DNA of 25,345 nt from a virus, in IMG/VR virus record IMGVR_UViG_3300009605_000129, positions 1-25,345 of that record. One strand, 5' to 3'. Both the position numbers and the translations under genes were made by a program. The stretch's first letter is position 1. Each line of letters starts with the position of its first letter. Positions 1-22,543 of the stretch are shown here, one piece after another. The notes below the pieces were generated by a model. It searched no databases and was not told where the DNA came from. It saw nothing but the letters and a program-made list of their open reading frames with translations.

Positions 1-3000
1 GGGTATAGTTATTAGAGTAAGCAGAGTCCCCCCAAGCCACGTAAAAACTATCTTTAGCGCCAGTAGAATCGGAAGTATTTCGCTTACGATATACCCACTC
101 TTCATTAATGGCCAGTTCGTCGCCAATAATTTCTAATCCGCCTTCGGCAGAGGCGTCTACGGCCCATGCACGAGTAGGTGGATTTAACAGGTCTTGCTCA
201 ATGGTATATTCATTCGCAGCCAAGCTAGCCGTTATCCCGTCCCCGCCAACTACGGTGGGACCAGCCAACTGCCCATCACTCGCAACAAGGTTAGTACCGG
301 CTATAGCTGAAACAAAATCAACTACAGATTCTTTAGCGTTTGTTCCCGTTGCTCCACCGTCCAAGAACAGGATGTAATCGTCAGCAACTTTTATCTCAGC
401 TTCATCAGCTTCTTGTAAATCTACACCGATCTCAATTGTTCCTGCGCCGTTAGTGATATCGATCAAAGCACCTTCTGTCAAGGTTGCTTTTGCGAGTGTG
501 TCACTAGCAGTGTGGCCGATAAGAAGTTCGCCGTCAGCATAAGTCGTCTGCGCAGTTCCACCCTTGGCAGTTGCCAACGTGCCGCCAATCGATGCCGCTG
601 AAAGATCGACAGCCATCTCGTCTGATTCTAATACTAGCCCACCATCGGCCTTTAGGTCTACGTTGAATATGGTGCCATCAAGCTCAAGGCCGTCTCCTGC
701 CGTATATTCGGTGTTAAGAGTCGTAAAGGTAATGGTGTCAGCAGAAGCCCCTCCCTCAAAGGTTGTAATCGCAATATTAGCATTGCCTTCTACGAGTGTT
801 AATGTGTCAGTCGTGTTCTCTGCACCAATAGTAGACTGTCCGTCAACAGCAATAAACTTGTACGCATTGTCGCCTCCAGCGCCAACCGTGTCAATGGCGG
901 TGTCCAAATCAAATACTGTGATAGCCTTCCACTCGCTAGCAGACTGATCCCAGATTATCAGCGTGTCTTGGGCATCGGCGGGGTCAAGGGAGGTCTCGTT
1001 AAGAGCGTTAAGGTTGTCTGGATCGTCAATTTCTATGCCGTCTGTCGTAAGCGCCAGAGGAGATGCTACTAAATCAGATAAAGCAACTTTCTTGAGGGCG
1101 TGTGTATCTTCACTATCGGAAATTAATATCTCGTCTGTAACTACAGGGTCGGTCTTTGCGGCGGTTCCGTTGATGTCCACCTTGAGGTTATCAGACCCAT
1201 CATCTGCCAATCCATCACCGGCAAAATCGTTTGGCTCTATTCCCAACTCTCCGTCAGGAGAGGAGCCGGTAAACTTTAGACCGCCACCAGATAGGAGATC
1301 TACATCTAGCGTTACGTCAGTCGTATTATCGGTCAAATCAAGACCGTCTCCAGCAACCAAGGCTCTTTCATCGGAAAGATCAGCGTGCATTCCTATAACC
1401 ACATATTCACCATCAGTTGGAGCGCCGCCACCACCTGAGCCAGCATCTACGTAAGCCTTTATCGCTTTCGTCGTGGCTATCGACGTATCGTTATCGCTAG
1501 ACGCCAGCCCCTCTGTAGATAAGACTAGAGTAGCAGCCGAGAAGTGTGTAGTATCGATATCTTGCGCGGTAAATGTTAACTCATATGAAGGCCCGATGGT
1601 ATCAGTCCAATTGATATTAACGCCGCCGCCTTCAACAAACTTTACATCCTCTCCGTCTGAAATAGTGACGGTGTCACTGTCTCCGTCTTCCAATATGAAA
1701 TTGTCCATCTTGGCATCCCAAGTGGTGGAAGAGGCAATATATAAATCAGCAATAGCATCGCCCTGCCAAGTACCCTCAGTAATAGTACCAACACCAGCCA
1801 GAGAAGTTAGAGACGTTAAACTGGTATGATCTATCAAGTATGTCGGTATTCTCGATAACGTTGAGAACCTATTAGTTCCACCTGCTCCATCATCAACAAT
1901 GAATAGATCCTCATCGACCAGCGCGGCGCTAATATCTACGCCGCCGTCTATATCAAGGTTGGCAATGGCAAAAGCGCCATCGGTGCAATCTAGCGTGGTA
2001 AATTCGCCAGCAGCAGCCTCGTTTATACCGATTGGAGTGCCGTCAATAGCTCCACCATCAATATTAATACTGTCTAGGGCAGCACTCTCAATAAAGTCTG
2101 CACGAGTGATTTTTTGGATTGTGCCATCGGCCCCGTCGTCAATCAGGATGAGGTCAGAATCTACTACTGTAGTAGTGGCAGCTAGGGTGTGCATCTCAAT
2201 CTTAAATCTTAAATCAAACGGGTCAGAATCAGACCCGGTAGATGTATCGGTCCATTGGACACTAACACCCTTTTCGCCATAAAGCATCATTTCATTGCTG
2301 TCAGCAATATCTACTTCTACTTCATCAGTATCTTGAATAGTAAAGGTGTTCATGCTACCACCGGCACCTATGCCTAGGTTGTCTATGGTAACCTTCTTGA
2401 ATGTACTAGTGGTAGCATCCCAAATCAGAAGATAGTCATTGGCAGTATCGGTAGCTCCAATGGCTGACTGGGCACTAATCAATTGGGGGGCTACATTAAA
2501 CGTAAGAGCATACGGATCTGAAGTATCGCCACCGTCTGTGTCCGTCCAGTTGATATTGATTCCCGTACCTTCGGTAAACTGTATAAATTCACCGTGAGAA
2601 ACTGTTACATCGTCGGTATCACCGTCTCTTACTACGAAGCCTGCCGTTATCGAATTGCTTAATATTCCAGAAAGCTCTGTTGGATCTATGGCAAGAATTT
2701 TCTTGTTACTATTAGTATACAGTACCGTATTAACGCCGCTGACGCCACTAACAATTACAGTGTCTGCTTGGTGGATCGCCTTTGGTGTGCCCGGAGCATT
2801 TGGCCCAAGATTGAACATGTCTCCCATGTCGAACTGTAAACCGTGATGCAAAGTTAACCCGCTACCAGCAGTATAAGCTCCGCTTATGATATTGTCGCAG
2901 TCACCGCGAAAGACTATGCCGCTAACATCAACCTTGGCATGCATTGGTCCCGATTCATTTTCTCCATCAAAGGAGGTCCAAGCATTACATGTCTCTTTCC

Positions 3001-4189
3001 AAACCCACTTCTTGTCTGAAACTGTAACCTCGGTGCCGTCGCCAGAAGACTTAATAATAATACCAGCAGTATCCACCAAGCTGTCTGTATAGACCGCATT
3101 GCCACTCATAGAAGCTAATTCAAGATGCTTGTCCCATATCGTAACGGTACTGCTGTCTATATATGTGACATCGCCCATGATATCCATATCGCCGCTAACT
3201 GATATGTTTCCACCAACAGTCAGATCGCCTGTAAGCGTCTCACTACCTCGTACTCTCAGATGATTAAACGTGGACTCCCAATATAAATCATCGTCATCTG
3301 TTAAGACATTATCTTCTGCCCAAAACGCAACGTTTCCCTTCGTCGTCGTGCCATTTCTGGTAACATATACATTGGACAGATCCGGTATGTCATCGTAGGT
3401 TAGAAATCTAAAGCTGGGATAAGCCGGGGAACAAGCCGTAGGAGTGCAGCCGCTGGGAGGACCAGCTAAGACATATCCCTTGGGTTGCTTCTTAAAGCAC
3501 AGCGTCTCCTCCACGATTCCGCTAAGCTGAAATACGTCATCCGTACCTGTTTTAGTACTAAGCTCATTTCTTAGGAAGTGCTCAAGCTGTGTCCCGCCAA
3601 TATATGCGGAGGTTGTGTTGCCACTAGGAAATATTACGCCAGAAGCGCCGGTAATTAAGCCAGAAGCCCGAATGATAGCCTTGTTAGGCCCGCCACCAAC
3701 ATCAATTGCATAAGCTGGAGCAGTATTCTCAATACCAATTCTGTTGTTCGTAGAGTCCCAAATGATACTAGGATCATAGTTTAGGATATTAGAAGTTTCC
3801 CAAAAAGCAAAGCCGCTGGCCGCAGGCTTGTTATAAGTACTCTCTAGTCCAGAAGCGGTGTATACCGAGAACGCGGCTGGATAAGTAACGTAGATTTCCT
3901 TCACACCATCTGGAAAATTAACGAGACCATCGCTACTGGTGCTTTTGAATGGGAATCTAACTAGTTGATTATAGGTAATGCTGGGATCTGATTCGTCAAG
4001 GTATTGACCTGATCCAACTTCGTATCTAACACCGTCAGTAATAGCATAATAAATTAGCGCATTATGCTCATAAAAACTGCCAAAAGAGCTAAATCCCGTC
4101 GCGGCACCTTCTAGTTGTAGATTTCCAGTGCCCGTAGTGTTACTTAGCTCTTTTATTCTGTCTGATAGGATTATTATATTGCTGGGCAT
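1..4189 (-). CDS. Giant tail-fibre protein, C-terminus beyond the window
   Basis: An uninterrupted minus-strand frame runs from an ATG at 4189 to the left edge, giving about 1396 residues with no stop. The start follows the TAG of the preceding gene by 4 nt, with a purine-rich GAGAGATAG stretch as ribosome site. Residues about 9-110 form the same N-terminal module as the fibre at 7114-8463 (R-I/V-K-E, G-x-G, GFxSF, YYxI, EVGxGxY, TYPA). Then come typical fibre segments: IIWDSTNNRIGIENTAP, VIFPSGNTTSAYIGG and GDLTVGGNISVSGD. The distal two thirds are built of degenerate repeats: three WTDT modules, six D-x-(hydrophobic)4-D modules and several AGDGL/VDL units. I infer a long trimeric beta-rich receptor-binding or side fibre. 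No transmembrane segment or enzyme motif is seen. The C-terminal tip, which would carry receptor specificity or a chaperone domain, is outside the window. Confidence 0.85.
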   Translation of the reverse strand, partial: MPSNIIILSDRIKELSNTTGTGNLQLEGAATGFSSFGSFYEHNALIYYAITDGVRYEVGSGQYLDESDPSITYNQLVRFPFKSTSSDGLVNFPDGVKEIYVTYPAAFSVYTASGLESTYNKPAASGFAFWETSNILNYDPSIIWDSTNNRIGIENTAPAYAIDVGGGPNKAIIRASGLITGASGVIFPSGNTTSAYIGGTQLEHFLRNELSTKTGTDDVFQLSGIVEETLCFKKQPKGYVLAGPPSGCTPTACSPAYPSFRFLTYDDIPDLSNVYVTRNGTTTKGNVAFWAEDNVLTDDDDLYWESTFNHLRVRGSETLTGDLTVGGNISVSGDMDIMGDVTYIDSSTVTIWDKHLELASMSGNAVYTDSLVDTAGIIIKSSGDGTEVTVSDKKWVWKETCNAWTSFDGENESGPMHAKVDVSGIVFRGDCDNIISGAYTAGSGLTLHHGLQFDMGDMFNLGPNAPGTPKAIHQADTVIVSGVSGVNTVLYTNSNKKILAIDPTELSGILSNSITAGFVVRDGDTDDVTVSHGEFIQFTEGTGININWTDTDGGDTSDPYALTFNVAPQLISAQSAIGATDTANDYLLIWDATTSTFKKVTIDNLGIGAGGSMNTFTIQDTDEVEVDIADSNEMMLYGEKGVSVQWTDTSTGSDSDPFDLRFKIEMHTLAATTTVVDSDLILIDDGADGTIQKITRADFIESAALDSINIDGGAIDGTPIGINEAAAGEFTTLDCTDGAFAIANLDIDGGVDISAALVDEDLFIVDDGAGGTNRFSTLSRIPTYLIDHTSLTSLTSLAGVGTITEGTWQGDAIADLYIASSTTWDAKMDNFILEDGDSDTVTISDGEDVKFVEGGGVNINWTDTIGPSYELTFTAQDIDTTHFSAATLVLSTEGLASSDNDTSIATTKAIKAYVDAGSGGGGAPTDGEYVVIGMHADLSDERALVAGDGLDLTDNTTDVTLDVDLLSGGGLKFTGSSPDGELGIEPNDFAGDGLADDGSDNLKVDINGTAAKTDPVVTDEILISDSEDTHALKKVALSDLVASPLALTTDGIEIDDPDNLNALNETSLDPADAQDTLIIWDQSASEWKAITVFDLDTAIDTVGAGGDNAYKFIAVDGQSTIGAENTTDTLTLVEGNANIAITTFEGGASADTITFTTLNTEYTAGDGLELDGTIFNVDLKADGGLVLESDEMAVDLSAASIGGTLATAKGGTAQTTYADGELLIGHTASDTLAKATLTEGALIDITNGAGTIEIGVDLQEADEAEIKVADDYILFLDGGATGTNAKESVVDFVSAIAGTNLVASDGQLAGPTVVGGDGITASLAANEYTIEQDLLNPPTRAWAVDASAEGGLEIIGDELAINEEWVYRKRNTSDSTGAKDSFYVAWGDSAYSNNYT
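300..2452 (-). repeat. Six degenerate D-(hydrophobic)4-D fibre repeats
   Basis: Six units share a core of D-x-(L/I/Y)-(hydrophobic)3-D followed 8-10 residues later by a basic residue and a D/F-L or D-F pair. Examples are DYLLIWD, DLILIDD, DLFIVDD, EILISDS, DTLIIWD and DYILFLD. They lie at roughly 2376-2452, 2080-2170, 1850-1925, 1065-1145, 900-975 and 300-390. They alternate with the WTDT units and with AGDGL segments, so the distal fibre looks like a string of two or three repeat types. Borders are approximate and were read by eye. Confidence 0.55.
1565..2630 (-). repeat. Three degenerate WTDT repeats inside the giant fibre
   Basis: Three copies of a roughly 40-residue unit lie at about 2495-2630, 2205-2335 and 1565-1690. 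The pattern is D-(T/S)-D-x-V-x-(V/I)-x-(D/H)-(G/S)-x-E, then G-x-G-(I/V)-x-(I/V)-x-W-T-D-T, an acidic loop, and a closing beta strand such as YALTF, FDLRF or YELTF. The WTDT tetrapeptide is identical in all three while the flanks have diverged, which points to old duplication of a shaft module. The function is inferred to be structural. Confidence 0.65.
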
Positions 4190-4193
4190 TTAT

Positions 4194-4616
4194 CTATCTC
4201 TCTAATATTTGAGGCCAGTATGCTTGTAAGTCTTCTACAGTCTCACAATCATCAATATCCTTTCTATCGGTAATATCTCTCAATCTTTTCTTTTTGCCCG
4301 CAATAGCTGCGGCCTTTTTGTCTTCACCTCGCTCCATGGCTTTCATCCAGCACACATCCAACTCTTTCAAACGATTATCTCTAGCAACCCTGATTTTGTT
4401 CATCCATATATGCTTAGCCTTATCCATATCTATTCCACAATTCATATCCCATGCCTCCCTGAATAACCTACTCTCAGGAAGCTCACTATCGTCAATTACC
4501 TTGTAACCAACGTCCTTGGGGACATCGTTGACAATTACGTGACGAATATTTACGCCGGGAGCAGGAACTATGACGGCCACGCCGTCCTCATGCTCATGAA
4601 TAACTACCTTTGCCAT
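4194..4616 (-). CDS. Tail-fibre assembly (chaperone)-like protein
   Basis: This 140-residue protein starts at an ATG with a strong GGAGG site 8 nt upstream. It has a short beta-rich N-terminus (residues 1-40) and a helical, highly charged middle with W-M-N-K-I-R-x-A-R-D-N-R-L-K, then D-x-x-x-M-K-A-M-E-R-G and K-K-R-L-R-D-I-T-D. It ends with an E-D-L-x-x-Y-W-P segment. The pattern of W..R..R..L..D, A..G, LRD-(I/P) and a terminal WP resembles the C-terminal part of phage tail-fibre assembly proteins. It sits between two fibre genes, only 4 nt before the start of the giant fibre, which fits a dedicated folding or attachment factor. The family call is by pattern and context and could be wrong in detail. 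Confidence 0.55.
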   Translation of the reverse strand: MAKVVIHEHEDGVAVIVPAPGVNIRHVIVNDVPKDVGYKVIDDSELPESRLFREAWDMNCGIDMDKAKHIWMNKIRVARDNRLKELDVCWMKAMERGEDKKAAAIAGKKKRLRDITDRKDIDDCETVEDLQAYWPQILER

Positions 4617-4643
4617 TGTCGATCCTCCACTATATAAAGTGTT

Positions 4644-5534
4644 TTAGCCTACGCCTTTACCCAGACCAAAAACTACCAAGTCATTAACTTTTGCGTCAAC
4701 ATAAGCCCCAAGCTCATTCAAGACAGAATAAGATAGGTTTCTAAGAGTCACCGCGTCGTCACCCTGTCTAACTACAAGACCAACAGTGTTTCTATCAAAG
4801 TCCGTGTTATCGTCAGCGGAATCTCTTGCGTTGCTGTTGCCTATGGCCGAGTAATTGTTGTCGGATAGTACGCCAGAAGTAAAGTTTATCTGGAACTTGC
4901 CAACAGCTAAGTCGGTAATAGAACTAATATTGTGGGACGAGTTAATAGAGGGGCTTCCTGTGCTTGCATCAAAATTAACCCAAGCCTTGGCCGTAGCATT
5001 ACCCGTACTGATTCTAGACGAATCCTCGAATATTAATTGCCCAGATACAAGTACTTGCTCTACTCTTTTCGCATCGCTGTCAACTTCGTACTGAAATTTG
5101 ATACCCCTGTTAATAGTTCCAGATGAGCCGATCCAATAATCGGTCATCATAAGGTTGGCCTCCATGCCTCTGGAGCCATCCACTGGTAAGTATTGCAGGT
5201 GAGGATCGCCGGTTGTTAGCCCCCCTAGGGTATTATGCAAAATAGCTCCAGCGCCGGGGTATGGTTCATACTGTGAACCGGCATTGGGCAATCCGTTATC
5301 AAACGTGATACCCGACTCGGTAACAAACATCCCGTTTCCGTTATCCGACGAAACCCTTACATTGTTAACAAATGGATATGCGACATTGTGATCACCGCTA
5401 CTGACGATACCATTAATTGAATTAATAGTATCTTCCATGTTGTGTCTAACATCTCTTGCGGAAATCAATCCAGCATTATTGTCAGATAACTCTGTCGATA
5501 TATTGGCTAAAATTTCTGCCTTTGACTTTGCCAT
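4644..5534 (-). CDS. Tail-fibre protein, short, DVRHN-type N-terminus
   Basis: This 296-residue protein begins at an ATG with an AAGGAGATAG ribosome site overlapping the end of the upstream gene. Residues 1-40 carry the attachment-like module S-K-x-x-I-x-x-N-I-x-x-E-x-x-D-N with I-S-x-x-D-V-R-H-N, which recurs in the 1809-residue fibre at 8500-13929. A shaft segment LGGLTTGDPHLQYLPVDGSR (about residues 102-121) follows. The distal part, about 182-235 (AWVNFDASTGSPSI, ISSITDLAVGKFQINFTSGV), is a widespread phage fibre tip pattern. The protein is glycine, serine and asparagine rich with no enzyme motif. I infer a receptor-binding or accessory fibre docked at the same site as the larger paralogue. 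Confidence 0.75.
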   Translation of the reverse strand: MAKSKAEILANISTELSDNNAGLISARDVRHNMEDTINSINGIVSSGDHNVAYPFVNNVRVSSDNGNGMFVTESGITFDNGLPNAGSQYEPYPGAGAILHNTLGGLTTGDPHLQYLPVDGSRGMEANLMMTDYWIGSSGTINRGIKFQYEVDSDAKRVEQVLVSGQLIFEDSSRISTGNATAKAWVNFDASTGSPSINSSHNISSITDLAVGKFQINFTSGVLSDNNYSAIGNSNARDSADDNTDFDRNTVGLVVRQGDDAVTLRNLSYSVLNELGAYVDAKVNDLVVFGLGKGVG

Positions 5535-5548
5535 TTAACTATCTCCTT

Positions 5549-6061
5549 CTAATATAGAAATCCGCCTCTGTGGTCCATGTATCTCTGCGAAACCATGTCG
5601 CTGCCGGGACTATACGGACCAAGAATAGCATGCCCAGCAATACTTCTTCCAGCACGGTAATCCAATAGTAATTTATCGTATTTCATACATAAGTCTTTGT
5701 ACAGTAAGACTAAGGTAGACGCAACCCCTCTAAGGTCTATCGCTGATGGACCATCTTTAATGGATATTGCATTACTTGCTTCGCTGCGAACCTCTCCTCC
5801 CAGAATAATACAAGCCGCCCTCAGACTAACCAAGTTAATAAATGCGTCTTCTTTAGTATCAGAGTCTGTGGGATCTGGGCTTAGCCCACATTGCTCCACA
5901 TTAATAGTGTAATCGTTAGAAAAATCAACCTCCAGCATAATAAGCTGAGCAGCTACTAGCAGAGTCGTTTCTACACGTTGGTTGTTATATTTGTACGCAG
6001 TTGAATCGATATCATCAACCAGATATCTTACAATAGTGGACATTTGGCCTTGCCAAGACAT
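5549..6061 (-). CDS. Putative virion structural or connector protein
   Basis: This 170-residue protein starts at an ATG whose AGGTGA site overlaps the stop codon of the preceding gene. It is predicted mostly alpha-helical: an N-terminal helix (MSWQGQMSTIVRYLVDD), an RVETTLLVAAQLI helix around residues 29-41, a D-F-x-x-x-Y-T-I-N-V strand, a conserved-looking SPDPTD turn, then an A-F-I-N-L-V helix. The C-terminal third has KDGPSAIDLRG and GPYSPGSD. I recall similar proteins of unknown function in aquatic phage structural modules, and the helical fold could suit a head-tail adaptor. The only direct evidence for a structural role is its place between BppU-like and fibre genes. Confidence 0.5.
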   Translation of the reverse strand: MSWQGQMSTIVRYLVDDIDSTAYKYNNQRVETTLLVAAQLIMLEVDFSNDYTINVEQCGLSPDPTDSDTKEDAFINLVSLRAACIILGGEVRSEASNAISIKDGPSAIDLRGVASTLVLLYKDLCMKYDKLLLDYRAGRSIAGHAILGPYSPGSDMVSQRYMDHRGGFLY

Positions 6062-6068
6062 AAGTCAC

Positions 6069-6374
6069 CTATAAGTTACAGTGAACCTTGAAAGTCTGTA
6101 TATCTGTATAAAAGGTGCCGCTAGTTATCGTTACCTTTCCCTGTATTTTGTAATTGCCAACCTCGTCTAGGTCTCCAAGAATGGCGTCATAATAAATTTG
6201 TCCATCAGTTCCGTCTGTCATCAAAGTTCCTGTTTTAGTCATAACGGTATCGCTTGGTTTTCTAAAAATGATCTGTAACAAAGTGGCACCAGACACATCT
6301 ACAACAGTTCCGTCGTCTTTTATAGTTACCAAGAACCTTGTCCCGATATCATTTACATGGATTTCACTGGCCAT
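6069..6374 (-). CDS. BppU-like baseplate/tail protein, N-terminal domain only
   Basis: This 101-residue all-beta protein reads V-N-D-I-G-T-R-F-x-V-T-I-K-D-D-G near the start. Around residues 27-50 it has D-V-S-G-A-T, I-I-F-R-K-P-S, and it finishes with G-N-Y-K-I-Q-G-K-V-T-I and Q-T-F-K-V. The order of parts (native boundary condition, linear term, polarised F-x-K-P strand, D-G-x-x-x-Y strand, G-x-Y strand) matches the immunoglobulin-like N-terminal domain of BppU-type baseplate upper proteins, without the longer C-terminal part of that family. An AGGAT site precedes the ATG. It probably links a fibre to the baseplate or tail tip. A generic Ig-like virion protein is the alternative. Confidence 0.6.
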   Translation of the reverse strand: MASEIHVNDIGTRFLVTIKDDGTVVDVSGATLLQIIFRKPSDTVMTKTGTLMTDGTDGQIYYDAILGDLDEVGNYKIQGKVTITSGTFYTDIQTFKVHCNL

Positions 6375-6402
6375 GGCGTTATCCTACAAAAACGTAATAT
6401 TA

Positions 6403-6410
6403 TATACCAT
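6403..6410 (-). promoter_or_regulatory. Weak promoter-like site before the BppU-like gene
   Basis: In the 68-nt gap between 6374 and 6443 the minus strand reads ATGGTATATAATATTACG. It resembles the GTGTATA sites but lacks the exact heptamer, and lies about 29 nt before the ATG. It also resembles an ordinary sigma-70 -10 box (TATAAT). A weak candidate only. Confidence 0.2.
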
Positions 6411-6442
6411 CTGGATGGATAATGAGAATTCAATTACCATAG

Positions 6443-6646
6443 TTATTCCTTTATGTCCTTTTTAATGGGCAAAACTGATTCTTGCTTTCTCTGCACGCTA
6501 AAAACTCGATCAGAGCTAGTTAACACGTCTATTGCGCGTGGAGATTCCTGTTGTATACTCAAAATTAACCCTAGTAATTCTCCATTGATTGCTTTAACAT
6601 CAGATTCTGAAAATCCAGTCCCTGAAAAACTATGGCCACCAAACAC
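6443..6646 (-). CDS. Small hypothetical protein, GTG start
   Basis: This 67-residue product begins at GTG 6646, only 2 nt after the TAG of the 94-residue gene; a CAGGTG stretch inside that gene's last codons can serve as ribosome site. The protein has a glycine-rich beginning (FGGHSFSGTGF), a helix with L-L-G-L-I-L-S-I-Q-Q, and a lysine-rich end. I do not recognise a family. The tight coupling with a gene that looks real, and its position inside an otherwise gap-free operon, are the reasons to call it. The antisense open frame over the same bases lacks such context. Confidence 0.55.
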   Translation of the reverse strand: MFGGHSFSGTGFSESDVKAINGELLGLILSIQQESPRAIDVLTSSDRVFSVQRKQESVLPIKKDIKE

Positions 6647-6648
6647 TA

Positions 6649-6933
6649 CTACACCTGCGGGTCATTAATATTGATACTTGTATCCAAGTTCTCAGAAGCC
6701 TGTTGCTGAGCTTTAGCCATTTCATACGCAGAGACGTTTTCGCTCAAAAACCCGCGAACCATTCTGTTGGCAAACATGGCCTTAGACTCTGGATTTGGAA
6801 TCGATTCTGGATCAACGCCCCCCTCTATGTAGTCAGGATTTGAAACATTTTCTCGCCATTTATAGTTTGCCGCCATAGCGTCAAGAACTCTCGATACATC
6901 CTCGTCGGCTATTTCAATTGAAAAACTCGCCAT
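6649..6933 (-). CDS. Small phage protein, helical, conserved-looking
   Basis: This 94-residue protein follows a strong AGGAG site. It reads F-S-I-E-I-A-D-E-D-V-S-R-V-L-D-A near the start, then Y-x-x-x-E with a short acidic loop and N-P-E-S-K-A-M-F-A-N-R-M, and a last helix A-Y-E-M-A-K-A-Q-Q-Q-A. Short proteins with this layout (beta strand, D-V-x-R-V helix, NPES, alanine-rich last helix) are common in tail regions of aquatic phages, but I know no assigned function. It is the first gene after the 180-nt gap at 6934-7113 and may head a separate transcription unit. Confidence 0.65.
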   Translation of the reverse strand: MASFSIEIADEDVSRVLDAMAANYKWRENVSNPDYIEGGVDPESIPNPESKAMFANRMVRGFLSENVSAYEMAKAQQQASENLDTSININDPQV

Positions 6934-7113
6934 TTTTCACTCTCCTGTAAATGATACTATGTGATCTCTCATTTAGTTATACACTTTTTTCTCTATTTTA
7001 GTTTGCTAAAAATCAATCCACAAATAACAGGAAGGCTGGGCTTGTAGCCGCCGCTGATACTTCTGGTACATCTGCACATTCAAACCACGCCTGAGAGACT
7101 TTAACGTATTCAC
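6934..7113. other. 180-nt intergenic gap with promoter-like site and orphan reading frame
   Basis: The gap holds the ribosome site of the 94-residue gene (6940s), the GTGTATA heptamer at 6978-6984, and a stop-bounded minus-strand frame from about 7012 to 7120. That frame encodes protein-like residues (ending in SPAFLLFVD) but has no ordinary start codon. I see no terminator hairpin. Confidence 0.6.
6978..6984 (-). promoter_or_regulatory. Candidate phage promoter, GTGTATA heptamer
   Basis: The minus strand reads AAAGTGTATAACTAAATG here, 48 nt before the first base of the 94-residue gene (44-49 nt spacing class depending on the edge used). The heptamer is identical to those at 14451, 17643 and 19832, all in intergenic gaps on the coding strand. 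No good -35 box is seen, which would suit a phage-modified RNA polymerase. The promoter role is inferred from repetition and position only. Confidence 0.4.
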
Positions 7114-8463
7114 CTAGATCAAATACCAGTTGCTGTTATTGGAAATAATAGTAACTGCTTCATACAGGTGTTCGATATTGAAAGAAGACTCTCCGTCTAT
7201 GGTCTCTGAACTATAGGTGTCGATAGTAACTATGTTATCCCCCGTGGCTCTCTTGATCGTAAACTCTTCGCCCCCATTATCGACTGCCGTTGGCAGTGTT
7301 ATTGTAACTGAACTGCTTGATGAATCAACAAAAACTGCGTCATGAGTAGGTGTTAGTATTGCACTGTCTGTAATTGTTGTGTAACGTCGCCGGTGCGTGT
7401 GGTCTGGGTTTGTATCCGTAGGTATGGCTGTAGTTTGAGATGTTCCATCGTTAAAATATAGAGTCGGTACAGTGATAGCCCCAGCAGAGCTTATAGACGC
7501 AAGGACTGTGCCGATACTACTCTGCCATTCTTGCAAATTTGAGGATTGTAGGGCTGCGCTCTTGATTTTTAACGCCGTGGTGGAGGCCACTGCATTATAT
7601 AATACCATACCCTCAGTTCTGTCGAGATTGAAGAGTGCTGAATCTTTGTGCTTTACCCAAAAGCCCGTTGTATAATGAAGCAAAAAAGCGCTGTCGCTAG
7701 TTGCATACATTCCTACCGACCCATTGTTTCCATAAGCATATCCCTGACTGGGAATCTCTGTGAATGACGAGGGGGAATTCTTCAGTCCCAATCTCCAAGT
7801 AGGACTGCTTTCGTTATCAAGATAAAGACCAATTGTTCTGTCGAATGTATTATCTACATAAGCGTGAAAAATGTTACCAGCAGAAGTTCTAGTAAATGCA
7901 GTAGTTCCATCTACAGACAGATCTCCGGCAACGCTTAAATCACCCGAGAATTCACCGGTTCCATCGACTACTAGCTTGCTATCACTTACGCTCCATGTAA
8001 GCTTAGGATCATAAGAAAAAGATAGCTCCCCATCCCAGTAAGGAATAGCTTCATTAAGACCCACGCCACTAAGGTATGCGGCAGTTTCTTGTATGCTCTC
8101 ATCTGGAAAAATAATGCCGCTATAAGGAGTTACGCCATCCGCGTACCCGTCCTCGTTTAAGATAAATGCCTTTTCTGCCGGATATGTAATAAAAACTATA
8201 GACGCGCCCTCTAAAGAGATTTTACTTCCATCATTGCTACTTGATAAAATAATATCTCTAGATAGCGTATTGTCGCCAGATTTATATGTTCCTATCCCAA
8301 CTTCCCAACGACCAAAGTTTTCAATACCATAATAGGTACTGTTCCCGTCACCCACGCCCTCAGAGAAAGACTGAAACCCGGCTAAAGCCCCTCCAAGCGA
8401 CATGCTACCAAGGCCGGAAGTAATCGTGGTTTCTTTTACCCTACCTGCAAGAATCAAGGCCAC
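7114..8463 (-). CDS. Tail-fibre protein, RVKE/GFxSF-type N-terminus
   Basis: This 449-residue protein starts at GTG 8463 with AAGGAG 7 nt upstream. Residues about 7-95 are the fibre attachment-like module (R-V-K-E-T, G-L-G-S-M-S-L-G-G-A, GFQSFSEG, YYGIENFG, EVGIGTY, LSRDIIL, ITYPAEKAF) shared with the giant fibre at 1-4189. A shaft follows with IIFPDESIQETAAYLSG (about 117-133) and GDLSVAGDLSVDG. The C-terminal 85 residues (about 365-449) form the common fibre-end domain with VTITLPTA, GEEFTIKRATGDNIVTID, SETIDGE and the terminal SNNSNWYLI. The whole pattern is that of a trimeric tail fibre, and its terminal NWYLI marks a complete C-terminus. It lies between the 1809-residue fibre and the small-protein cluster. 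Confidence 0.8.
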   Translation of the reverse strand: MALILAGRVKETTITSGLGSMSLGGALAGFQSFSEGVGDGNSTYYGIENFGRWEVGIGTYKSGDNTLSRDIILSSSNDGSKISLEGASIVFITYPAEKAFILNEDGYADGVTPYSGIIFPDESIQETAAYLSGVGLNEAIPYWDGELSFSYDPKLTWSVSDSKLVVDGTGEFSGDLSVAGDLSVDGTTAFTRTSAGNIFHAYVDNTFDRTIGLYLDNESSPTWRLGLKNSPSSFTEIPSQGYAYGNNGSVGMYATSDSAFLLHYTTGFWVKHKDSALFNLDRTEGMVLYNAVASTTALKIKSAALQSSNLQEWQSSIGTVLASISSAGAITVPTLYFNDGTSQTTAIPTDTNPDHTHRRRYTTITDSAILTPTHDAVFVDSSSSSVTITLPTAVDNGGEEFTIKRATGDNIVTIDTYSSETIDGESSFNIEHLYEAVTIISNNSNWYLI

Positions 8464-8499
8464 ATCTCAACTCCTTAAGAATCAGGGGGAGACTACGAT

Positions 8500-11400
8500 T
8501 TAGAATGTCTGATTATCGTAGACGTTACCCTTGATATACAGGTTGCCGTCGCGGTCCAGATAAGCGACCATTTCCGTGTCATTCCACCACGTCTGTAACT
8601 TCGTGTCAGTGGGCGCATTAGCAATCACGTCTAGCACGCCTGTTGGAGCAAGTATAGCATTGCCAATAGAGATGCGTTTTTGGGACATGTCGCCAGCAAT
8701 GCAAGTTCCCAAGGCAATCTTGTTACTAATCTCTCCTCCACCAATAACCCTACTAGACCCACCAACTCCGGCGGTAAGTTCGATATTATACTCTCCAGTT
8801 ACTGATTCTAGAGCATTATCACCGATACCAATAGACCTAGCGCTGCCCGCAAACTGGCCAGCAGAATCACCGATGAATACGGACATTCTAGAATCATCAG
8901 CCCGATATCCAGCGCTTGAGCCAATAAATACCGAGTGGTCTGCGTTACTGGCTTCCCAACCGGCTCTATATCCCATGAAGTTGGAATAGCTACAGCTATC
9001 AACAATAGTAGAGTCAGTTTCGCTTGCTCCAGCTTCTGTTCCAATAAAGTTTGTAAAGTCGGAATTAGTTGATCTGTGCCCAGCTTTATATCCAAAGAAG
9101 TTGGTATAACAATTTGTAGAGGATATTGTACTAGTGTTGGTAAATACGTGGTTCTGACCTCCTCCACTATCGCAGTCTTGTATTCTCGGACTTCCCGCTT
9201 CAATATGATCACCAATATCTGCAATATTGATTTTACCTAATACGTCATCAGTACTTATCACTAAGTAGGAGTTGATATCACTTACAGTGGAAACAGAGTC
9301 TGCGTCTGCAAGCTCTTCAATATCTATATGGAATTCCTGATTGCCCAAGGATGTATTAAGCTCGCTGCGTAAGCCGTCGCCAGCGAGGATAACTATACCA
9401 GTAGTGCTACCCATGCTGGTTCCATCACAGAACCTAATGGAGCCTCTTAGATTCAAATCCCCCTTAAGTTCAGCTACCGGCCTTTCTGTTGATGGAACGT
9501 GATAGGAACAACTATTGCCCATTGGAGCAACGTGATGTCTAAGTGTAAACAAGGTATTTTCGTCATCGTTTGCGCCGGTAAAGACAAATGCCACTCCACC
9601 GGCAGGATAATCGTTAACTGTATCTATTTTCTCTATCAGGCTAGCTATTTTATCTGAGCCAAAGAAATCCTGATCGTGACCTAGCGTTAACTTATCGACT
9701 CCTTGGTCTGAAGTAACAGAAAATCTAGCTTTTGGAACATATAAATGTCTATCCGCAACACTCGGCCCCATAATGCCACGGAGCACAACGTTGTCTTCGT
9801 CAGAGCCAAGCATAAAGGTGTAATCAGTATCTACACCTCTACCTATGTCACCACCGCCAATAATAATACTATTCGTTAGTCCATCAGCGGCATTGGATAG
9901 CGCGGTATGTCCGATAGCAATGTTCTTGTGGCCATCAACAAGAGATTCGCCAGCGCTATTGCCGATAAGGAGGTTGCCATACCCAGCCTCTACTGCCACG
10001 CCAGCGTCAACACCTATAGCAAGATTATCATCACCAGTGGTAATCTGATTAAGGGCAGAGTGGCCCAGCGTGGTATTTTTAAATTGCCCCTGAGAAATTA
10101 CATCTGCTCTAGAATCTGGCGTATGTCTCCCAGCATATGTGTTTTTATTATCATCAGCATAAAGAAGGCTACCGTCAGTTACGTCCATTGAACTGTGGAC
10201 TAAATCAAACTCATGTCCCCCGTCGTCCATGAAGTATAGAGACTGTGTTTGATCTGGAACTACCTTTTCTTTAACGTATACCTTGCCGTATTCATCCGTT
10301 GTGGTATCTGGCTTTACGTCTTGCTGCTGAATGCTGATAGCTGCCGAGCCGGTAATTCCGCTTGATAACGTAAGCAACTCATTGGGCGTAGCCGTGTGTA
10401 TTCCAACGAATTTATTATCATTGTCTAGGGAAATGATGATTTTACTTGAGCCATGCTTCCAAAGAGACATATCTGCTCTTCGTGTCAAAACAGAATATTC
10501 AAGCTCAACACCTTCAGAGGACACCCCTAGAGGGTTATTATCAGAGGCCAACAGTTGCAAAGAAGCTTTATGCGTTCCGCCCAAAGTAGTATTACGGGCT
10601 ATAGTTTCTCCCGTACTCTGAATATTAAAGATGGTTTCTGGAAGGATCGCATAAGCTACGTTTTTAATATCATTAATACCCACTAGCCCCGGATCACTAG
10701 ACCTCATGACCGTTATTGCGTTGAGCGGGTGTGGCGAATCATCATAAGCAGAAATAGTTAATCTGTCCTTCTTCTGCCCTGTATATCCTACTACATCTTT
10801 CTCATCTATATTATCAATGCCAAATCCGGTAATATGGTCTCTAGGTGGGTCAAATTGCGTAGCTTGTTTCTTGTTCATCGTTCTCGTAACAAGCCGTTGA
10901 CCAACAGTAACGCCAGAGCCTAGGTGTGAGTAACTAACATGATAATCACTGACGCCGGAAGATATGAAATTGACATCTGTAACGTTAGCAATGTTGCCTT
11001 CTGGACCAATTGGGTTTGGCGTAATGTGTGCTTCCTGAGCAAGGTAAACAACGTTATCTGACTCAATTATAGACGATATGTCTGATGAGCCGTCTTGGAC
11101 GGTTTCCACAGCACAACTGCCACCGACAGAAGATGGTCCTTGACCTTCATGGCTGTATAGTGACATGCCTAACCTAGGAGCTTCATAACCATCAACAGTA
11201 AGATCAGTACCTGTACGCCCTCTAGTTGTGATCTCAAGAGGCGAGGCGGATTGACTTTCATACCTTGCGATTAAAACCTCATCTTGAGCAAGTAGGGTTT
11301 CGTCAGTATATGTGATGAACCATCCGGCATACATTAAGTCATCAGCAATCGAGCCTTCTGGCCAATTGCCTAGAGCTTGATAGGTCACACCCGCCCCGTT

Positions 11401-13929
11401 AGATGATATAACCATCTTGCCATTACCAAACGCATCATCGAATTTGGCCTGAGCCATCGCTACGCTATCGCTTGAAAAGACCGAGCAGGTGGTGGACGAA
11501 CCATCAATAAATTGAACGAATCTAATAGTATGACCAACATTATAAGGTTCGGCAATGTCTGGATCATACTGATCATTGTCTGCCCATATACTAAAGTCCG
11601 TTCCGGTGTGGTGGCCGTATTCCCGTCTTGGAGTATAATCCCATGCGAGGGTGCCTACAAGATTAGTGAGATCTGGCTCTATTGGATCGCTGGGGGCGTG
11701 ACCCGCCGGATACGGATAAAAGAAACTAATCTTGGTGAGGGAGGAAATGTTGTCATCAATGGAGGCTCGATCTGGCCAACCGGCGGCAATGGTGAAGAGT
11801 CTGTTTTGGCCCGCGCCATCAGTTAATGGCTTTATGGTAGGATTATGGTCATCATTACTTGCTATAATCTCTGATATAGCGCAGATGCCAACGCATTCCG
11901 GGAAACCTGTCGATGAATTTGTTGTTTGGTCCCACTGATAGCGGCCCGGTGTTACCGTCCATCCAGTAACACCAACCTCCAAGACCTTGGCGTTAAGAAT
12001 GTCGCATATTTCTGTCTGAGTTGCGTCATAAGGTATGTCAGGTGTCGAATGAATAACATCATCCCATTCTGTCCTAAATCTTATCTTCCATGACCCACCC
12101 GTTGCCGCAGTCCCGGCGTTGATGTAAAAGTAATCCGCAGTGAAGGGCGTGGTGTCATCGGTGTGCGAGCCGCCGCTGTCGTAGTTTCCCGGTGCCATGA
12201 ATGAATGAACGAAGTATTTTCTAACTTCGCTTCCGCTACCACCTAGGGTCAAAGCTGCGCCATCGCATGTAATCTGCGGAAGATCTGTATTAGCCTTAGT
12301 TCCAACAAATGTAACCGTCCACGACCCCCCGTCATTTCCGGTAACAGCAACGTCGTCCACTGCTATGTTTGAGAGAGCCTCAAGCGCAGTTTGAACTGTA
12401 GCCGAAGATGCATCAAAGGCAATAGCGGCAGTTGGGCCTTCGCCATCAAATGATAGAGTAAACGTTCCGCCGGTAGCATTAACCGTTATTAACTGAACTT
12501 CGTTCTGACCAGCCTCGCCAGTTCTAATAGTATCGTCAGTCTTTTGTATAAAGATACCATAGCCGGGGGAATGGCAATTAATCAGCGCAAGATTATCTCT
12601 GCCAATAACCCTATCTGTCTTGAGATGGCCGCTTGCAGCAATATGCACACTGATATTGCTATTCCACGACGATCTGGTATAGGGCGTATCTGCTTCTAGG
12701 CACTCCAAGGTGGTGTCTGGAGCGCGATACACCCACTCATAGTCTCTTCTATAGTTAGTACCGCTAGACTGAAGAACTATTCCGCCGCCCTCTATCTGCT
12801 GATCCTGCAAGAATCCACACGGAGCGCCGCCGGGATTACAAACATCCCCACTGGAAGCTAGATAGAGAGTTCTGCACTCATAAATGCAGCTATTAATCTC
12901 TTTATAGTTATACGTAGTAATGTCTGCCGTGCCACTAACAGAGATATTCTTAAAGAATCCATAATTCCACCTTAGTGGCTCAGCCCCCAAGTCAAAAGTA
13001 TCGGATAATTGAGGAACTATATTACCCTTAGAGGTAACTAATCCTTGGTCTCCAGAGGGAGCGTTGGTGCCAAATCCAATACTGCCGTCGCCGTCTAGGT
13101 ATACAACATCCGTCTTGCCGTAAAGATCAGTTGTCTTAGACGGGGTAGAGGACTGGATAGAGAGACTGGCATCGGCTGGATAATCTATCGTGCTGGAAAG
13201 GTACAGGCTCTTCCATCTCTTTGGTTCTCTACCAAGGTGATCATCACCGTATATACCCGTTCCCCCCTCTACTGGAGTTATGTCTCCAGATACCTGTAGA
13301 ACGCCAAAGCGATGGAGGGTATTTGTAGCAACACCCAATTTGAGATCCTTCAAATCCCCGAAAAGGAGGGGCGAAGGAGAGCCGTCGTCGCAATCCGCTA
13401 CGGGATGACTACCTAGGTAGAAAGTATAGTCAACATTATCGCCTATATAATAACCGGCGCCATGCCCAACAGCTATATTAAAATCGCCCTGCTTATTTGT
13501 TTGCAGGGCATGATTACCTAGAGCGACATTGCCGGAACCCAAAACGTTGCCAGCTATCGCATTATATCCCACGGCTGTATTGCTACTACCATAAAGATTA
13601 CAGCTTATGGCAAAAGAACCAATAGCGGTGTTTTTCGTCCCATCGTAGTTGTTGGATAGAGCAGAATAACCAAAAGCAGAGTTATCTGTACTACTGTATC
13701 CATCAAGATGAAGCTTGGATATGGCCGAATCACCGGCTCTGGTTGTGCGTGTGGCTACAGTGCCAAAGTTTTTAGAGAGTAGATCTTGATCAGCCGGGAA
13801 TAAATTATGGACTGAATCTACAATATCAAGCAGGTTATGCCTGACATCATTTGGAGAAATCTCCGCAGTAGCGTTATCTGGGATCTCTCTTTTTATATTG
13901 TCTACTATCTGTGTCTTAGATAGAATCAT
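8500..13929 (-). CDS. Giant tail fibre/adhesin with YadA-head-like beta-rolls
   Basis: This 1809-residue protein starts at an ATG 9 nt after the preceding stop, with TAGGGCG as a weak site. Residues 1-40 are the DVRHN-type module shared with the 296-residue fibre. Three blocks of N-T-A-(I/V)-G-x-x-A-type repeats (about residues 83-165, 1285-1377, 1606-1723) match the left-handed beta-roll of YadA-type trimeric autotransporter heads. Residues about 476-563 hold a beta module with NEVQ, GGTFTLSFDG, ATVQTALEAL and VTFVGT, a unit seen in many phage structural proteins. About 600-660 looks like a diverged second copy (SWKIRFRTEW, DIPYDATQTE, GWTVTPG). The far end has LQTWWNDTEMVAYLDRDG, a frequent fibre tip. 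No S74 chaperone domain or signal peptide is visible. Inferred role: a long trimeric fibre making the first contact with the host or an environmental surface. Confidence 0.85.
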   Translation of the reverse strand: MILSKTQIVDNIKREIPDNATAEISPNDVRHNLLDIVDSVHNLFPADQDLLSKNFGTVATRTTRAGDSAISKLHLDGYSSTDNSAFGYSALSNNYDGTKNTAIGSFAISCNLYGSSNTAVGYNAIAGNVLGSGNVALGNHALQTNKQGDFNIAVGHGAGYYIGDNVDYTFYLGSHPVADCDDGSPSPLLFGDLKDLKLGVATNTLHRFGVLQVSGDITPVEGGTGIYGDDHLGREPKRWKSLYLSSTIDYPADASLSIQSSTPSKTTDLYGKTDVVYLDGDGSIGFGTNAPSGDQGLVTSKGNIVPQLSDTFDLGAEPLRWNYGFFKNISVSGTADITTYNYKEINSCIYECRTLYLASSGDVCNPGGAPCGFLQDQQIEGGGIVLQSSGTNYRRDYEWVYRAPDTTLECLEADTPYTRSSWNSNISVHIAASGHLKTDRVIGRDNLALINCHSPGYGIFIQKTDDTIRTGEAGQNEVQLITVNATGGTFTLSFDGEGPTAAIAFDASSATVQTALEALSNIAVDDVAVTGNDGGSWTVTFVGTKANTDLPQITCDGAALTLGGSGSEVRKYFVHSFMAPGNYDSGGSHTDDTTPFTADYFYINAGTAATGGSWKIRFRTEWDDVIHSTPDIPYDATQTEICDILNAKVLEVGVTGWTVTPGRYQWDQTTNSSTGFPECVGICAISEIIASNDDHNPTIKPLTDGAGQNRLFTIAAGWPDRASIDDNISSLTKISFFYPYPAGHAPSDPIEPDLTNLVGTLAWDYTPRREYGHHTGTDFSIWADNDQYDPDIAEPYNVGHTIRFVQFIDGSSTTCSVFSSDSVAMAQAKFDDAFGNGKMVISSNGAGVTYQALGNWPEGSIADDLMYAGWFITYTDETLLAQDEVLIARYESQSASPLEITTRGRTGTDLTVDGYEAPRLGMSLYSHEGQGPSSVGGSCAVETVQDGSSDISSIIESDNVVYLAQEAHITPNPIGPEGNIANVTDVNFISSGVSDYHVSYSHLGSGVTVGQRLVTRTMNKKQATQFDPPRDHITGFGIDNIDEKDVVGYTGQKKDRLTISAYDDSPHPLNAITVMRSSDPGLVGINDIKNVAYAILPETIFNIQSTGETIARNTTLGGTHKASLQLLASDNNPLGVSSEGVELEYSVLTRRADMSLWKHGSSKIIISLDNDNKFVGIHTATPNELLTLSSGITGSAAISIQQQDVKPDTTTDEYGKVYVKEKVVPDQTQSLYFMDDGGHEFDLVHSSMDVTDGSLLYADDNKNTYAGRHTPDSRADVISQGQFKNTTLGHSALNQITTGDDNLAIGVDAGVAVEAGYGNLLIGNSAGESLVDGHKNIAIGHTALSNAADGLTNSIIIGGGDIGRGVDTDYTFMLGSDEDNVVLRGIMGPSVADRHLYVPKARFSVTSDQGVDKLTLGHDQDFFGSDKIASLIEKIDTVNDYPAGGVAFVFTGANDDENTLFTLRHHVAPMGNSCSYHVPSTERPVAELKGDLNLRGSIRFCDGTSMGSTTGIVILAGDGLRSELNTSLGNQEFHIDIEELADADSVSTVSDINSYLVISTDDVLGKINIADIGDHIEAGSPRIQDCDSGGGQNHVFTNTSTISSTNCYTNFFGYKAGHRSTNSDFTNFIGTEAGASETDSTIVDSCSYSNFMGYRAGWEASNADHSVFIGSSAGYRADDSRMSVFIGDSAGQFAGSARSIGIGDNALESVTGEYNIELTAGVGGSSRVIGGGEISNKIALGTCIAGDMSQKRISIGNAILAPTGVLDVIANAPTDTKLQTWWNDTEMVAYLDRDGNLYIKGNVYDNQTF
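8762..9113 (-). repeat. YadA-head-like beta-roll block 3
   Basis: Residues about 1606-1723 carry NFFGYKAG, NFIGTEAG, NFMGYRAG, VFIGSSAG, VFIGDSAG, IGIGDNAL and then NIELTAG. The units use F at the position where blocks 1 and 2 use A, so this block belongs to a different sub-type. The open plus- and minus-strand frames over this stretch are shadows of the repeat. Confidence 0.7.
9798..10077 (-). repeat. YadA-head-like beta-roll block 2
   Basis: Residues about 1285-1377 carry NTTLGHSAL, NLAIGVDAG, NLLIGNSAG, NIAIGHTAL and NSIIIGGGD, then TDYTFMLGS. The shared closing motif D-Y-T-F-x-L-G-S with block 1 suggests the two blocks came from one internal duplication. Confidence 0.75.
12241..12504 (-). 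other. NEVQ/ATVQTALEAL beta module inserted in the giant fibre
   Basis: Residues about 476-563 read NEVQLI, GGTFTLSFDGEGPTAAIAFD, ATVQTALEALSNI, GGSWTVTFVG and LPQITCDG. I recognise this as a self-contained module of about 85-90 residues that recurs, often in tandem, in phage and bacterial surface proteins. Here one clear copy is followed by one diverged copy near residues 600-660. Its role is not established; a beta-sandwich spacer is the simplest reading. Confidence 0.6.
13435..13683 (-). repeat. YadA-head-like beta-roll block 1
   Basis: Residues about 83-165 of the giant fibre contain successive 14-18-residue units: NSAFGYSAL, NTAIGSFAI, NTAVGYNAI, NVALGNHAL, NIAVGHGAG. This is the classic alternation of small and hydrophobic residues in YadA/Hia head left-handed parallel beta-rolls. 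The block ends with VDYTFYLGS, which recurs at the end of block 2. Confidence 0.75.
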
Positions 13930-13938
13930 TATCGCGCC

Positions 13939-14403
13939 CTACTTAAAGCTGATTTCTAAAGTATCCACATCGAACTTTACATTATCTCCTGTGTAAATGA
14001 TTCTTGGATTCGTTAGCTGGGCGTGCATTAATAAGTTGCCTTCACCAATAGTGGAGCTATCCACAATAGCAACGCCAGAAACCCATCCCCAATCACTTAG
14101 GGCCGGATTGAAGATGATTTGACCACTGTTTTTAACAGTGCCGCTACCAGCATCAAATTCATGCGGCCTGAAATTCCACGTAGTATTTCCGTCTTCAACA
14201 GGACTACCAAGGTCTACCCTGTCGTAGCCAGTACCTGAACCGCTCCAGCTAGAGGAAAATTCGGGAATAGTGCCGCCGTCATGACCATCAAGGGGGATAC
14301 CACTAGTTAACGCCACAGAGATATTACTTGGCTTTGGGAAAGATTGGCCTCTGAAAACATGGTGTATCAGGCCAGATTCTAGATAATCGGATAGAGCAGC
14401 CAT
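13939..14403 (-). CDS. Small phage tail protein, beta-rich
   Basis: This 154-residue protein starts at an ATG with a strong AGGAGAC site and is the first gene after the capsid terminator. It opens with A-L-S-D-Y-L-E-S-G-L-I-H-H-V-F-R-G, then a beta strand I-S-V-A-L-T-S-G-I-P and an insertion rich in S, G and D. A C-terminal half follows with W-G-W-V-S-G-V-A-I-V-D-S, G-N-L-L-M-H-A and N-P-R-I-I-Y-T-G-D-x-V-K-F. Proteins of about 130-160 residues with this plan (YLE..LI..hFR, hhVALytS, WG.V...GIyD, GNLL, TGD) are widespread in tail modules of aquatic phages. I know no firm function. Its place right before the giant fibre suggests a fibre adaptor or tip protein. Confidence 0.6.
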   Translation of the reverse strand: MAALSDYLESGLIHHVFRGQSFPKPSNISVALTSGIPLDGHDGGTIPEFSSSWSGSGTGYDRVDLGSPVEDGNTTWNFRPHEFDAGSGTVKNSGQIIFNPALSDWGWVSGVAIVDSSTIGEGNLLMHAQLTNPRIIYTGDNVKFDVDTLEISFK

Positions 14404-14450
14404 TGTTGTCTCCTATCATTTGTCCTAAAAATGCAAGTATTCTATAACTA

Positions 14451-14457
14451 TATACAC
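14451..14457 (-). promoter_or_regulatory. Candidate phage promoter, GTGTATA heptamer
   Basis: The minus strand reads TTATGTGTATATAGTTATAG, right after the T-run of the capsid terminator and about 47 nt before the ATG of the 154-residue tail gene. A terminator followed at once by this repeated heptamer is what one expects at a transcription-unit border. The promoter role is inferred. Confidence 0.45.
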
Positions 14458-14462
14458 ATAAT

Positions 14463-14493
14463 AAAAAAGCCACCCCCCGATATGGGGGGCGGC
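14463..14493 (-). terminator. Rho-independent terminator after the capsid gene
   Basis: On the minus strand the arms GCCGCCCCCC and GGGGGGTGGC form a 10-bp stem (one G-U pair in RNA) with loop ATATC, followed by TTTTTT. The second arm holds a T where the plus-strand version would give an A-C mismatch, so the hairpin is perfect only in minus-strand RNA. It begins 34 nt after the major capsid stop codon. Confidence 0.9.
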
Positions 14494-14527
14494 TCAAGAA
14501 CGGGTCTAGTTAGATCGCGTACTAGTA

Positions 14528-15535: not shown

Positions 15536-15541
15536 GTTATT

Positions 15542-15547
15542 CTCCTT
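15542..15547 (-). promoter_or_regulatory. Ribosome binding site that fixes the capsid start
   Basis: AAGGAG on the minus strand, 6 nt upstream of ATG 15535. It lies inside the reading frame that would be used from ATG 15562, so it decides in favour of the shorter capsid protein. Confidence 0.8.
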
Positions 15548-15564
15548 ATGAGTGGTTTTCATTT

Positions 15565-22533: not shown

Positions 22534-22543
22534 TTCGTTATCC

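What the first reader, a model, noticed from the sequence alone, without database searches (positions are those of the whole stretch)
1..8463. A second shared anchor (RVKE/GFxSF type) in the other two fibres
Seen: the fibre at 7114-8463 and the giant fibre ending at 1 share an N-terminal module of about 90-100 residues with R-(I/V)-K-E, G-x-G, L-x-G-A, G-F-x-S-F, Y-Y-x-I, E-V-G-x-G-x-Y and T-Y-P-A. With the DVRHN pair this makes two docking types, each used by one short and one giant fibre: a two-by-two arrangement, which implies a multi-fibre or switchable adsorption device.
Basis: partly seen in the sequence, partly recalled or inferred. Interest (0 to 1): 0.55.

Follow-up and report, generated by a model that had tools for sequence, protein, structure and literature searches.

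The report
Four-slot phage fibre gene array
This uncultured phage carries four host-attachment fibre genes built on two kinds of shared root piece, and its close relatives keep those roots in the same fixed order, which suggests several fibres worn at once rather than swapped in and out.

Summary
In detail: the fibre at 7114-8463 and the giant fibre 2-4189 (cut by the contig end) share a ~100-residue N-terminal module (score 141, shuffled mean 31.6); the other pair shares 43 residues. The reading is half right. In relatives the order is always B1 (giant, after a gp80-type gene), optional A1, B2 (short), A2. A2 follows B2 in 36 of 36 arrays; A1 is found in 19 of 36. A1 and A2 are separate old lineages (100/96, 100/99), as are B1 and B2: four slots, not two interchangeable pairs. 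Short/giant is fixed for B; for A only a tendency (A2 longer in 12 of 14 decidable arrays). Switching finds no support: reverse transcriptase and serine recombinase 0 of 21 records each. Module A is shared with named phages but has no Pfam or PHROG model. Its A1 model resembles the N-terminus of a phage GP4 fibre (Z 8.3), without significant sequence similarity and not reproduced with the A2 model. Best reading: a four-slot, multi-fibre adsorption apparatus of an uncultured long-tailed phage lineage.

The parts
2..4189 (-). A2-slot fibre, 1396 aa as seen, cut by the contig end
   Evidence: open frame; module A at the N-terminus; phrog_31660 tail fiber at residues 1199-1261
3863..4189 (-). module A, A2 subtype (residues 1-109)
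4194..4616 (-). probable fibre assembly chaperone between B2 and A2
   Evidence: Phage_tail_APC 21.4 bits, below the 26.6 cut-off; phrog_20196 unknown function E 1.3e-17, tail fiber assembly families weak, E 0.003-0.005
4644..5534 (-). B2-slot short fibre, 296 aa
   Evidence: module B at the N-terminus; distal part phrog_11355 tail fiber
5406..5534 (-). module B, B2 subtype (residues 1-43)
5549..6061 (-). conserved 170-aa protein c8; neck/connector by position only (inference)
   Evidence: in all 10 mapped phages, next to c7 and B2; directly behind the putative capsid gene in a distant relative, L269; no significant family or PDB match
6069..6374 (-). conserved 101-aa protein c7, BppU_N-like
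   Evidence: BppU_N 20.1 bits, below the 23.1 cut-off; in all 10 mapped phages
6649..6933 (-). small conserved protein c17, function unknown
   Evidence: family in 5 of 10 mapped phages
7114..8463 (-). A1-slot fibre, 449 aa, GTG start
   Evidence: module A at the N-terminus; C-terminal phrog_37034 E 9.2e-7 (unknown function) and phrog_20556 E 0.0021 (baseplate protein)
8164..8463 (-). module A, A1 subtype (residues 1-100)
   Evidence: model m97be4777628d pLDDT 87.7
8500..13929 (-). B1-slot giant fibre, 1809 aa
   Evidence: module B; phrog_4636 tail spike and others
13801..13929 (-). module B, B1 subtype (residues 1-43)
13939..14403 (-). gp80-type virion protein (PF23140), directly before B1
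   Evidence: 87.1 bits against cut-off 27; PDB 8jou_a E 1.6e-6; next before the first module B in 149 of 149 loci that hold one
14528..15562 (-). putative major capsid protein (by position, size and conservation; no family match)

Best explanation
The window holds the adsorption island of an uncultured long-tailed phage lineage. Four fibre-type proteins occupy four fixed, non-interchangeable slots (B1, A1, B2, A2). Each N-terminal module is a docking domain. A1 and A2, and likewise B1 and B2, are ancient duplicates that now dock at different places (different virion sites or different partner proteins), while the parts behind the modules vary in length and content. A virion therefore most likely carries several fibre types at once, with A1 optional. 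Shown: the shared modules, the fixed order, the one-clade status of each slot, the B2-A2 and gp80-B1 pairing. Inferred: docking function, simultaneous presence, receptor binding by the distal parts. Not known: where on the virion each module docks.
For: Module similarity far above shuffles. Order B1-(A1)-B2-A2 in every array that spans it; A2 follows B2 in 36 of 36, A1 found in 19 of 36. Slot trees: A1 100/96, A2 100/99, B1 against B2 99/99. Mean identity 0.56 within A1 and 0.53 within A2 across phages, 0.34 between them. Four columns where both slots are at least 80% conserved with different residues, e.g. S against K. gp80 next before the first module B in 149 of 149 loci (163 examined). Module A also heads proteins of six other phage records, four of them annotated as tail fibre and two as S74-like or hypothetical. 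The A1 model (pLDDT 87.7) has as best solved match residues 4-107 of a GP4 tail fibre protein present in 18 chains (Z 8.3, next 5.9). All fibre genes lie on one strand, gaps 4-274 bases, with a chaperone-like gene between B2 and A2.
Against: No experiment on any member; the putative capsid protein has no match among 50,697 phage records. The GP4 resemblance is not backed by sequence: profile probability 0.45%, E 0.13, score 13.3 against 200 shuffled-column scores of mean 10.8 and maximum 21; the aligner's own note says a best Z of 7-8 is typical of models without a clear relative. The A2-slot model is poor (pLDDT 69.8); its best solved match is an unrelated helicase at Z 6.4 and GP4 is not among its 50 rows. 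The trees rest on 100 and 42 columns, and the B bootstrap had not settled. In three of the four fixed A1/A2 differences the other phages mostly share the A2 residue, so they mark A1 rather than two specialised slots. Records are fragments, some near-duplicates, so counts are not independent.
Confidence: 0.6

Rival explanations
1. Branched complex: only some of the four proteins touch the virion and others dock on them; A2 docks on B2, its invariable neighbour, as tail spikes dock on one another in Ackermannviridae.
For: A2 next to B2 in 36 of 36 arrays; precedent of shared N-terminal domains linking four tail spikes (PMC11414711, passages).
Against: Pfam reported no family, so no gp10-type domain, in the four fibre proteins. 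Module A occurs in six other phage records with no module B among the 21 proteins examined there and none found in the collection by tblastn with the B2 N-terminus, so module A can work without a B partner.
Confidence: 0.25
2. B1 is a neck or head fibre working with gp80, not a tail adsorption fibre, as in the gp80 fibres of GP4, while the A proteins are tail fibres.
For: gp80 next before the first module B in 149 of 149 loci; gp80, A and B are all undetected in the more distant clade (0 of 83 loci each); the gp80 relative is a GP4 virion protein with 10 chains in 8jou. Neck fibres of A-1(L) and the DEV collar show such sites exist (PMC10966104, PMC10925440).
Against: Adjacency is not contact; module B has no solved relative; B2 shares module B but lies away from gp80. 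The collar is not general: passages of PMC11654681 report C12, not C15, for two relatives of DEV.
Confidence: 0.3
3. Switchable device: the two A or the two B fibres are alternatives expressed or assembled in turn.
For: Only the pairwise sharing of modules.
Against: No reverse transcriptase in 21 and no serine recombinase in 21 records, window included; only one 21-nt, 81% inverted pair in window 1-14500; slots diverged long ago; same strand throughout. Other switch types were not tested and the records are fragments.
Confidence: 0.07

Closest known systems
Module A of other phage records (Methylophilales phage Venkman, Pelagibacter phage HTVC023P, Roseobacter phages CRP-6 and CRP-603, metagenomic genomes ct7L0027 and ctXG6705)
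   Same: Same N-terminal module, profile probability 100%, E 2.3e-45; a small protein lies upstream, of phrog_240 (the gp80 family) in 3 and phrog_644 (unknown function) in 3 of 6; in ctXG6705 an HNH gene lies between
   Different: One module A place per record and no module B among the proteins examined; here two A lineages plus B
Ralstonia podophage GP4 fibre apparatus (PDB 8jou, 8jov)
   Same: gp80 relative; A1 module fold resembles the N-terminus of the 439-aa fibre protein with 18 chains; several fibre types on one virion (recalled from Zheng 2023, whose title was seen only in reference lists)
   Different: No significant sequence similarity of the modules; a tape-measure gene and so a long tail here; no counterpart of module B found in solved structures
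Ackermannviridae branched tail-spike complex
   Same: Four receptor-binding proteins with N-terminal domains shared between some of them, variable distal parts (PMC11414711, passages)
   Different: No gp10-like domain reported here; which proteins share domains differs; partner binding unknown
Anabaena myophage A-1(L): neck fibres plus long and short tail fibres
   Same: Several fibre types at two sites on one virion (PMC10966104, three sections read)
   Different: Contractile tail; no sheath or Baseplate_J match in 16 records of this lineage; relation of its gp82N to module A untested

Membership tests
Module A fibre N-terminus of other phages (unnamed) | profile match over the whole module | tested here: met
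   105 columns, probability 100%, E 2.3e-45; Venkman gp58 E 1.1e-40
Module A fibre N-terminus of other phages (unnamed) | at the N-terminus of its protein | tested here: met
   match starts at residue 2-6 in the 28 ORFs listed; one later ORF call begins further upstream (G033)
GP4 long-fibre N-terminal anchor (8jov_1 type) | same fold over the domain | tested here: inconclusive
   A1 model Z 8.3, rmsd 3.6, 96 aligned, next row 5.9; not among the 50 rows shown for the low-confidence A2 model
GP4 long-fibre N-terminal anchor (8jov_1 type) | significant sequence-profile similarity | tested here: not met
   probability 0.45%, E 0.13; shuffles reach higher scores
GP4 long-fibre N-terminal anchor (8jov_1 type) | docks on the tail nozzle as trimers (recalled) | not testable with these tools
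gp80 family PF23140 (13939-14403) | score over the curated cut-off | tested here: met
   87.1 bits against 27; 8jou_a E 1.6e-6
Diversity-generating retroelement fibre system | reverse transcriptase in the genome | tested here: not met
   PF00078 in 0 of 21 records, control rings in 3 of 14 genomes; records are fragments
Invertible (Gin/Cin-type) fibre switch | serine recombinase and inverted repeats around the fibre genes | tested here: not met
   PF00239 in 0 of 21 records, control rings in 10 of 14; only a 21-nt 81% inverted pair
Branched receptor-binding complex (Ackermannviridae type) | gp10-like XD domains | tested here: inconclusive
   no Pfam family reported at E 0.1 for the four fibre proteins; partner binding not testable
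Contractile-tailed phage | sheath and Baseplate_J genes | tested here: not met
   0 of 16 longer records each, window not among them; diverged homologues not excluded

The most novel reading that the evidence does not exclude
A non-contractile, long-tailed phage lineage builds its virion with four different fibre types from two duplicated anchor families at two stations: gp80-linked B1 at the head-neck region and A-type fibres at the tail, with B2-A2 as a joint unit and A1 as an optional fourth arm. Anchor and gp80 genes are gained or lost as one package between clades (present here, 0 of 83 loci in a more distant clade), so the whole adsorption organ is exchanged as a module.
Probability: 0.22. 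Interest if true: 0.6.

Novelty: new variant of a known kind. Interest (0 to 1): 0.4.

Why it matters
Phages with several receptor-binding proteins are, to my knowledge, studied mainly in cultured phages of well-known hosts. Its fixed four-slot array gives a clean system for asking how duplicated anchors diverge into separate docking sites. It also brings out two anchor modules that lack good models: A has only scattered weak matches (best PHROG E 0.011, best Pfam E 0.0011, each in one of 22 members), B only weak phrog_3614 matches (14 of 24 members, best E 0.0021).

Tried and rejected
Collar reading of module A. DEV and GP4 have 15-copy neck collars, and the best structural match of module A was first seen only as the GP4 portal-tail complex. 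One search showed that the matched chain is a 439-aa tail fibre protein with 18 chains, so I dropped the collar reading. BcepMigl gp26 hits a different GP4 chain, 8jou_D. BcepMigl gp28 gave nothing useful.

Direct homology of module A to the GP4-type fibre N-terminus: not supported by profiles. Replication with an A2-slot model failed, though both models find largely the same predicted phage proteins in BFVD. c8 as a known neck protein: no significant match. c7 to module A: no match. tblastn of the B2 N-terminus in the phage collection: no match. In one search the QVRRGT column is invalid because that model failed to build; one search replaces it. The B2 search mostly returned relatives of its distal tip and was not used for slot counts. 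A line in my notes that six of six upstream genes are gp80-like was corrected (3 phrog_240, 3 phrog_644); six of the eight records were examined.

Full report
Setting. The window is a 25,345-base virus record with the listed genes on the minus strand: terminase (phrog_2, E 3.2e-23), a portal-like protein (phrog_2739, E 6.7e-6), a putative capsid protein at 14528-15562 named here by position only, a gp80-type protein (PF23140), then the fibre region to the contig end. In a relative with more sequence (G013) the order continues to a tape measure protein of at least 2191 aa, so the tail is long. No sheath or Baseplate_J gene was found in 16 longer records.

Observation. The two A proteins share about 100 N-terminal residues and the two B proteins 43, both far above shuffled sequence; the three cross comparisons run are at chance, and the rest of each pair is at or near chance. 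The giant A protein is cut by the contig end.

Relatives. Profiles of 22 A modules and 24 B modules were run over the whole records of 36 of the 80 relatives, and an A profile of 23 rows and the same B profile over 15 more records, 14 and one MAG; I chose mainly long contigs. In the first set plus the window (37): order BABA in 15, BBA in 7, BA in 10, B alone in 5 (one record, G022, is counted across its ends). In the second set: BABA in 4 arrays, BBA in 10, B alone in 2; the MAG, named SAR202, holds two arrays. So of 36 arrays with B2, A2 follows in 36 and A1 is found in 19. No array has the modules in another order. Among 163 loci (80, 5, 77, the window), 149 hold module B, and in all 149 the gene before the first B is gp80; these loci overlap in part and include near-duplicates. 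One extra weak B match (E 9.5e-4) in G042 is probably chance.

Slots. A1 and A2 each form one clade (100/96 and 100/99), and A1 lies closer to modules of unrelated phages than to A2 (42 rows, 100 columns, two A2 rows relabelled from their coordinates). B1 and B2 split at 99/99 on 42 columns, 53 and 9 rows, with six B rows of unclear slot left out and a bootstrap that had not settled. Mean identity across phages is 0.56 within A1, 0.53 within A2, 0.34 between; 0.58, 0.60 and 0.38 for B. Fifteen columns are conserved and identical in both A slots; four are conserved but different, and at three of these the other phages mostly have the A2 residue. This is the pattern of four orthologous slots, most simply explained by separate docking partners.

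Lengths. Uncut B1 frames are at least 528 aa and uncut B2 frames 296-353 aa. Of the 19 arrays with both A genes, 5 cannot be decided because one A gene runs off a contig end (G008, G011, G022, G025, G031). In the other 14, counting the window's cut A2 as a lower bound, A2 is longer in 12 and A1 in 2 (G006, G027). A1 exceeds 1500 aa in 5 records (G008, G021, G025, G027, G031). So the short/giant pairing is firm for B and a tendency for A.

A more distant clade. Searching with the capsid-like protein of L270, 64% identical to the window's, gave 80 more loci. With L269-L271 (64-67%) these 83 loci show neither A nor B nor gp80 (0 each); they have a BppU-like gene in 76 and a QVRRGT-type module in 62. 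Many loci end soon after the capsid gene, so absence there is weak. In L269 c8 lies directly behind the capsid gene. The A/B/gp80 set therefore looks like a package.

Structure. The A1 module model has pLDDT 87.7. Foldseek finds no significant solved match, but among its candidates the structural aligner ranks 8jov_1 of GP4 first (Z 8.3, rmsd 3.6, 96 aligned, next 5.9). That chain is a 439-aa tail fibre protein with 18 chains, identified through BcepMigl gp25 (E 2.9e-26). Eighteen chains fit six trimers; that these sit on the nozzle is recalled, not shown here. Profile comparison gives no support, Z 8.3 is only just above what unrelated models reach according to the tool's note, and the A2 model did not reproduce the match. 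I treat the GP4 link as a lead of moderate weight. Predicted viral proteins with the same fold are many (34 at E up to 0.001; 29 for the A2 model), mostly from uncultured phages.

Mechanism. Most likely each N-terminal module docks its fibre at its own site and the distal parts meet the host; several fibres are present at once and A1 is optional. Switching lacks support. A branched B2-A2 unit and a gp80-B1 neck fibre are the main open rivals; both fit the fixed pairings. Precedents: Ackermannviridae tail spikes (PMC11414711, passages), A-1(L) neck and tail fibres (PMC10966104, sections 7, 8 and 13 read), DEV gp53 collar (PMC10925440, a preprint, section 10 and passages read), GP4 fibre proteins as cited in PMC13243795 (section 16 and passages read). 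PMC10386132 (passages) states that the N-terminal domain of a tail fibre is seldom replaced within a phage group, in line with the conserved modules here. Passages of PMC12796354 and PMC11654681 were seen for neck symmetry only. Literature searches listed no paper that I recognised as describing module A or this array; they cover open-licence papers only.

Noticed in passing
L268 and G049 contigs C7 (152,655 bases) and C9 (93,671 bases): A SAR202 cluster bacterium MAG holds two contigs, each with a full B-A-B-A array. SAR202 may be a host, or the phage contigs were binned wrongly; the four other MAG hits carry other taxon names. No paper in the library held four tried phrases for SAR202 viruses.
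   Followed up: partly
L350-L429: More distant clade with contigs up to 243,821 bases uses a QVRRGT...WNSL-type module; 39 of 83 loci have two or more matches to it (not checked whether in separate genes), perhaps a second way of doubling fibres in the same position.
   Followed up: partly
window 21856-25344: Four open frames upstream of the terminase have no clear PHROG match (best E 0.0078; Pfam not run); the 217-aa one at 22544-23197 resembles shikimate dehydrogenase by eye (recalled, no call). Possible auxiliary metabolic genes.
   Followed up: no
L273: Another record (IMGVR_UViG_3300009418_003129) matches the window's 44-residue B1 N-terminus at 100%; possibly the same or a very close phage.
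   Followed up: no
between B1 and c7 in G009, G014, G033, G022: The stretch between B1 and c7 grows to about 29 kb (G014) with giant proteins without relatives in the mapped set (up to 3690 aa in G009), a hypervariable island.
   Followed up: no
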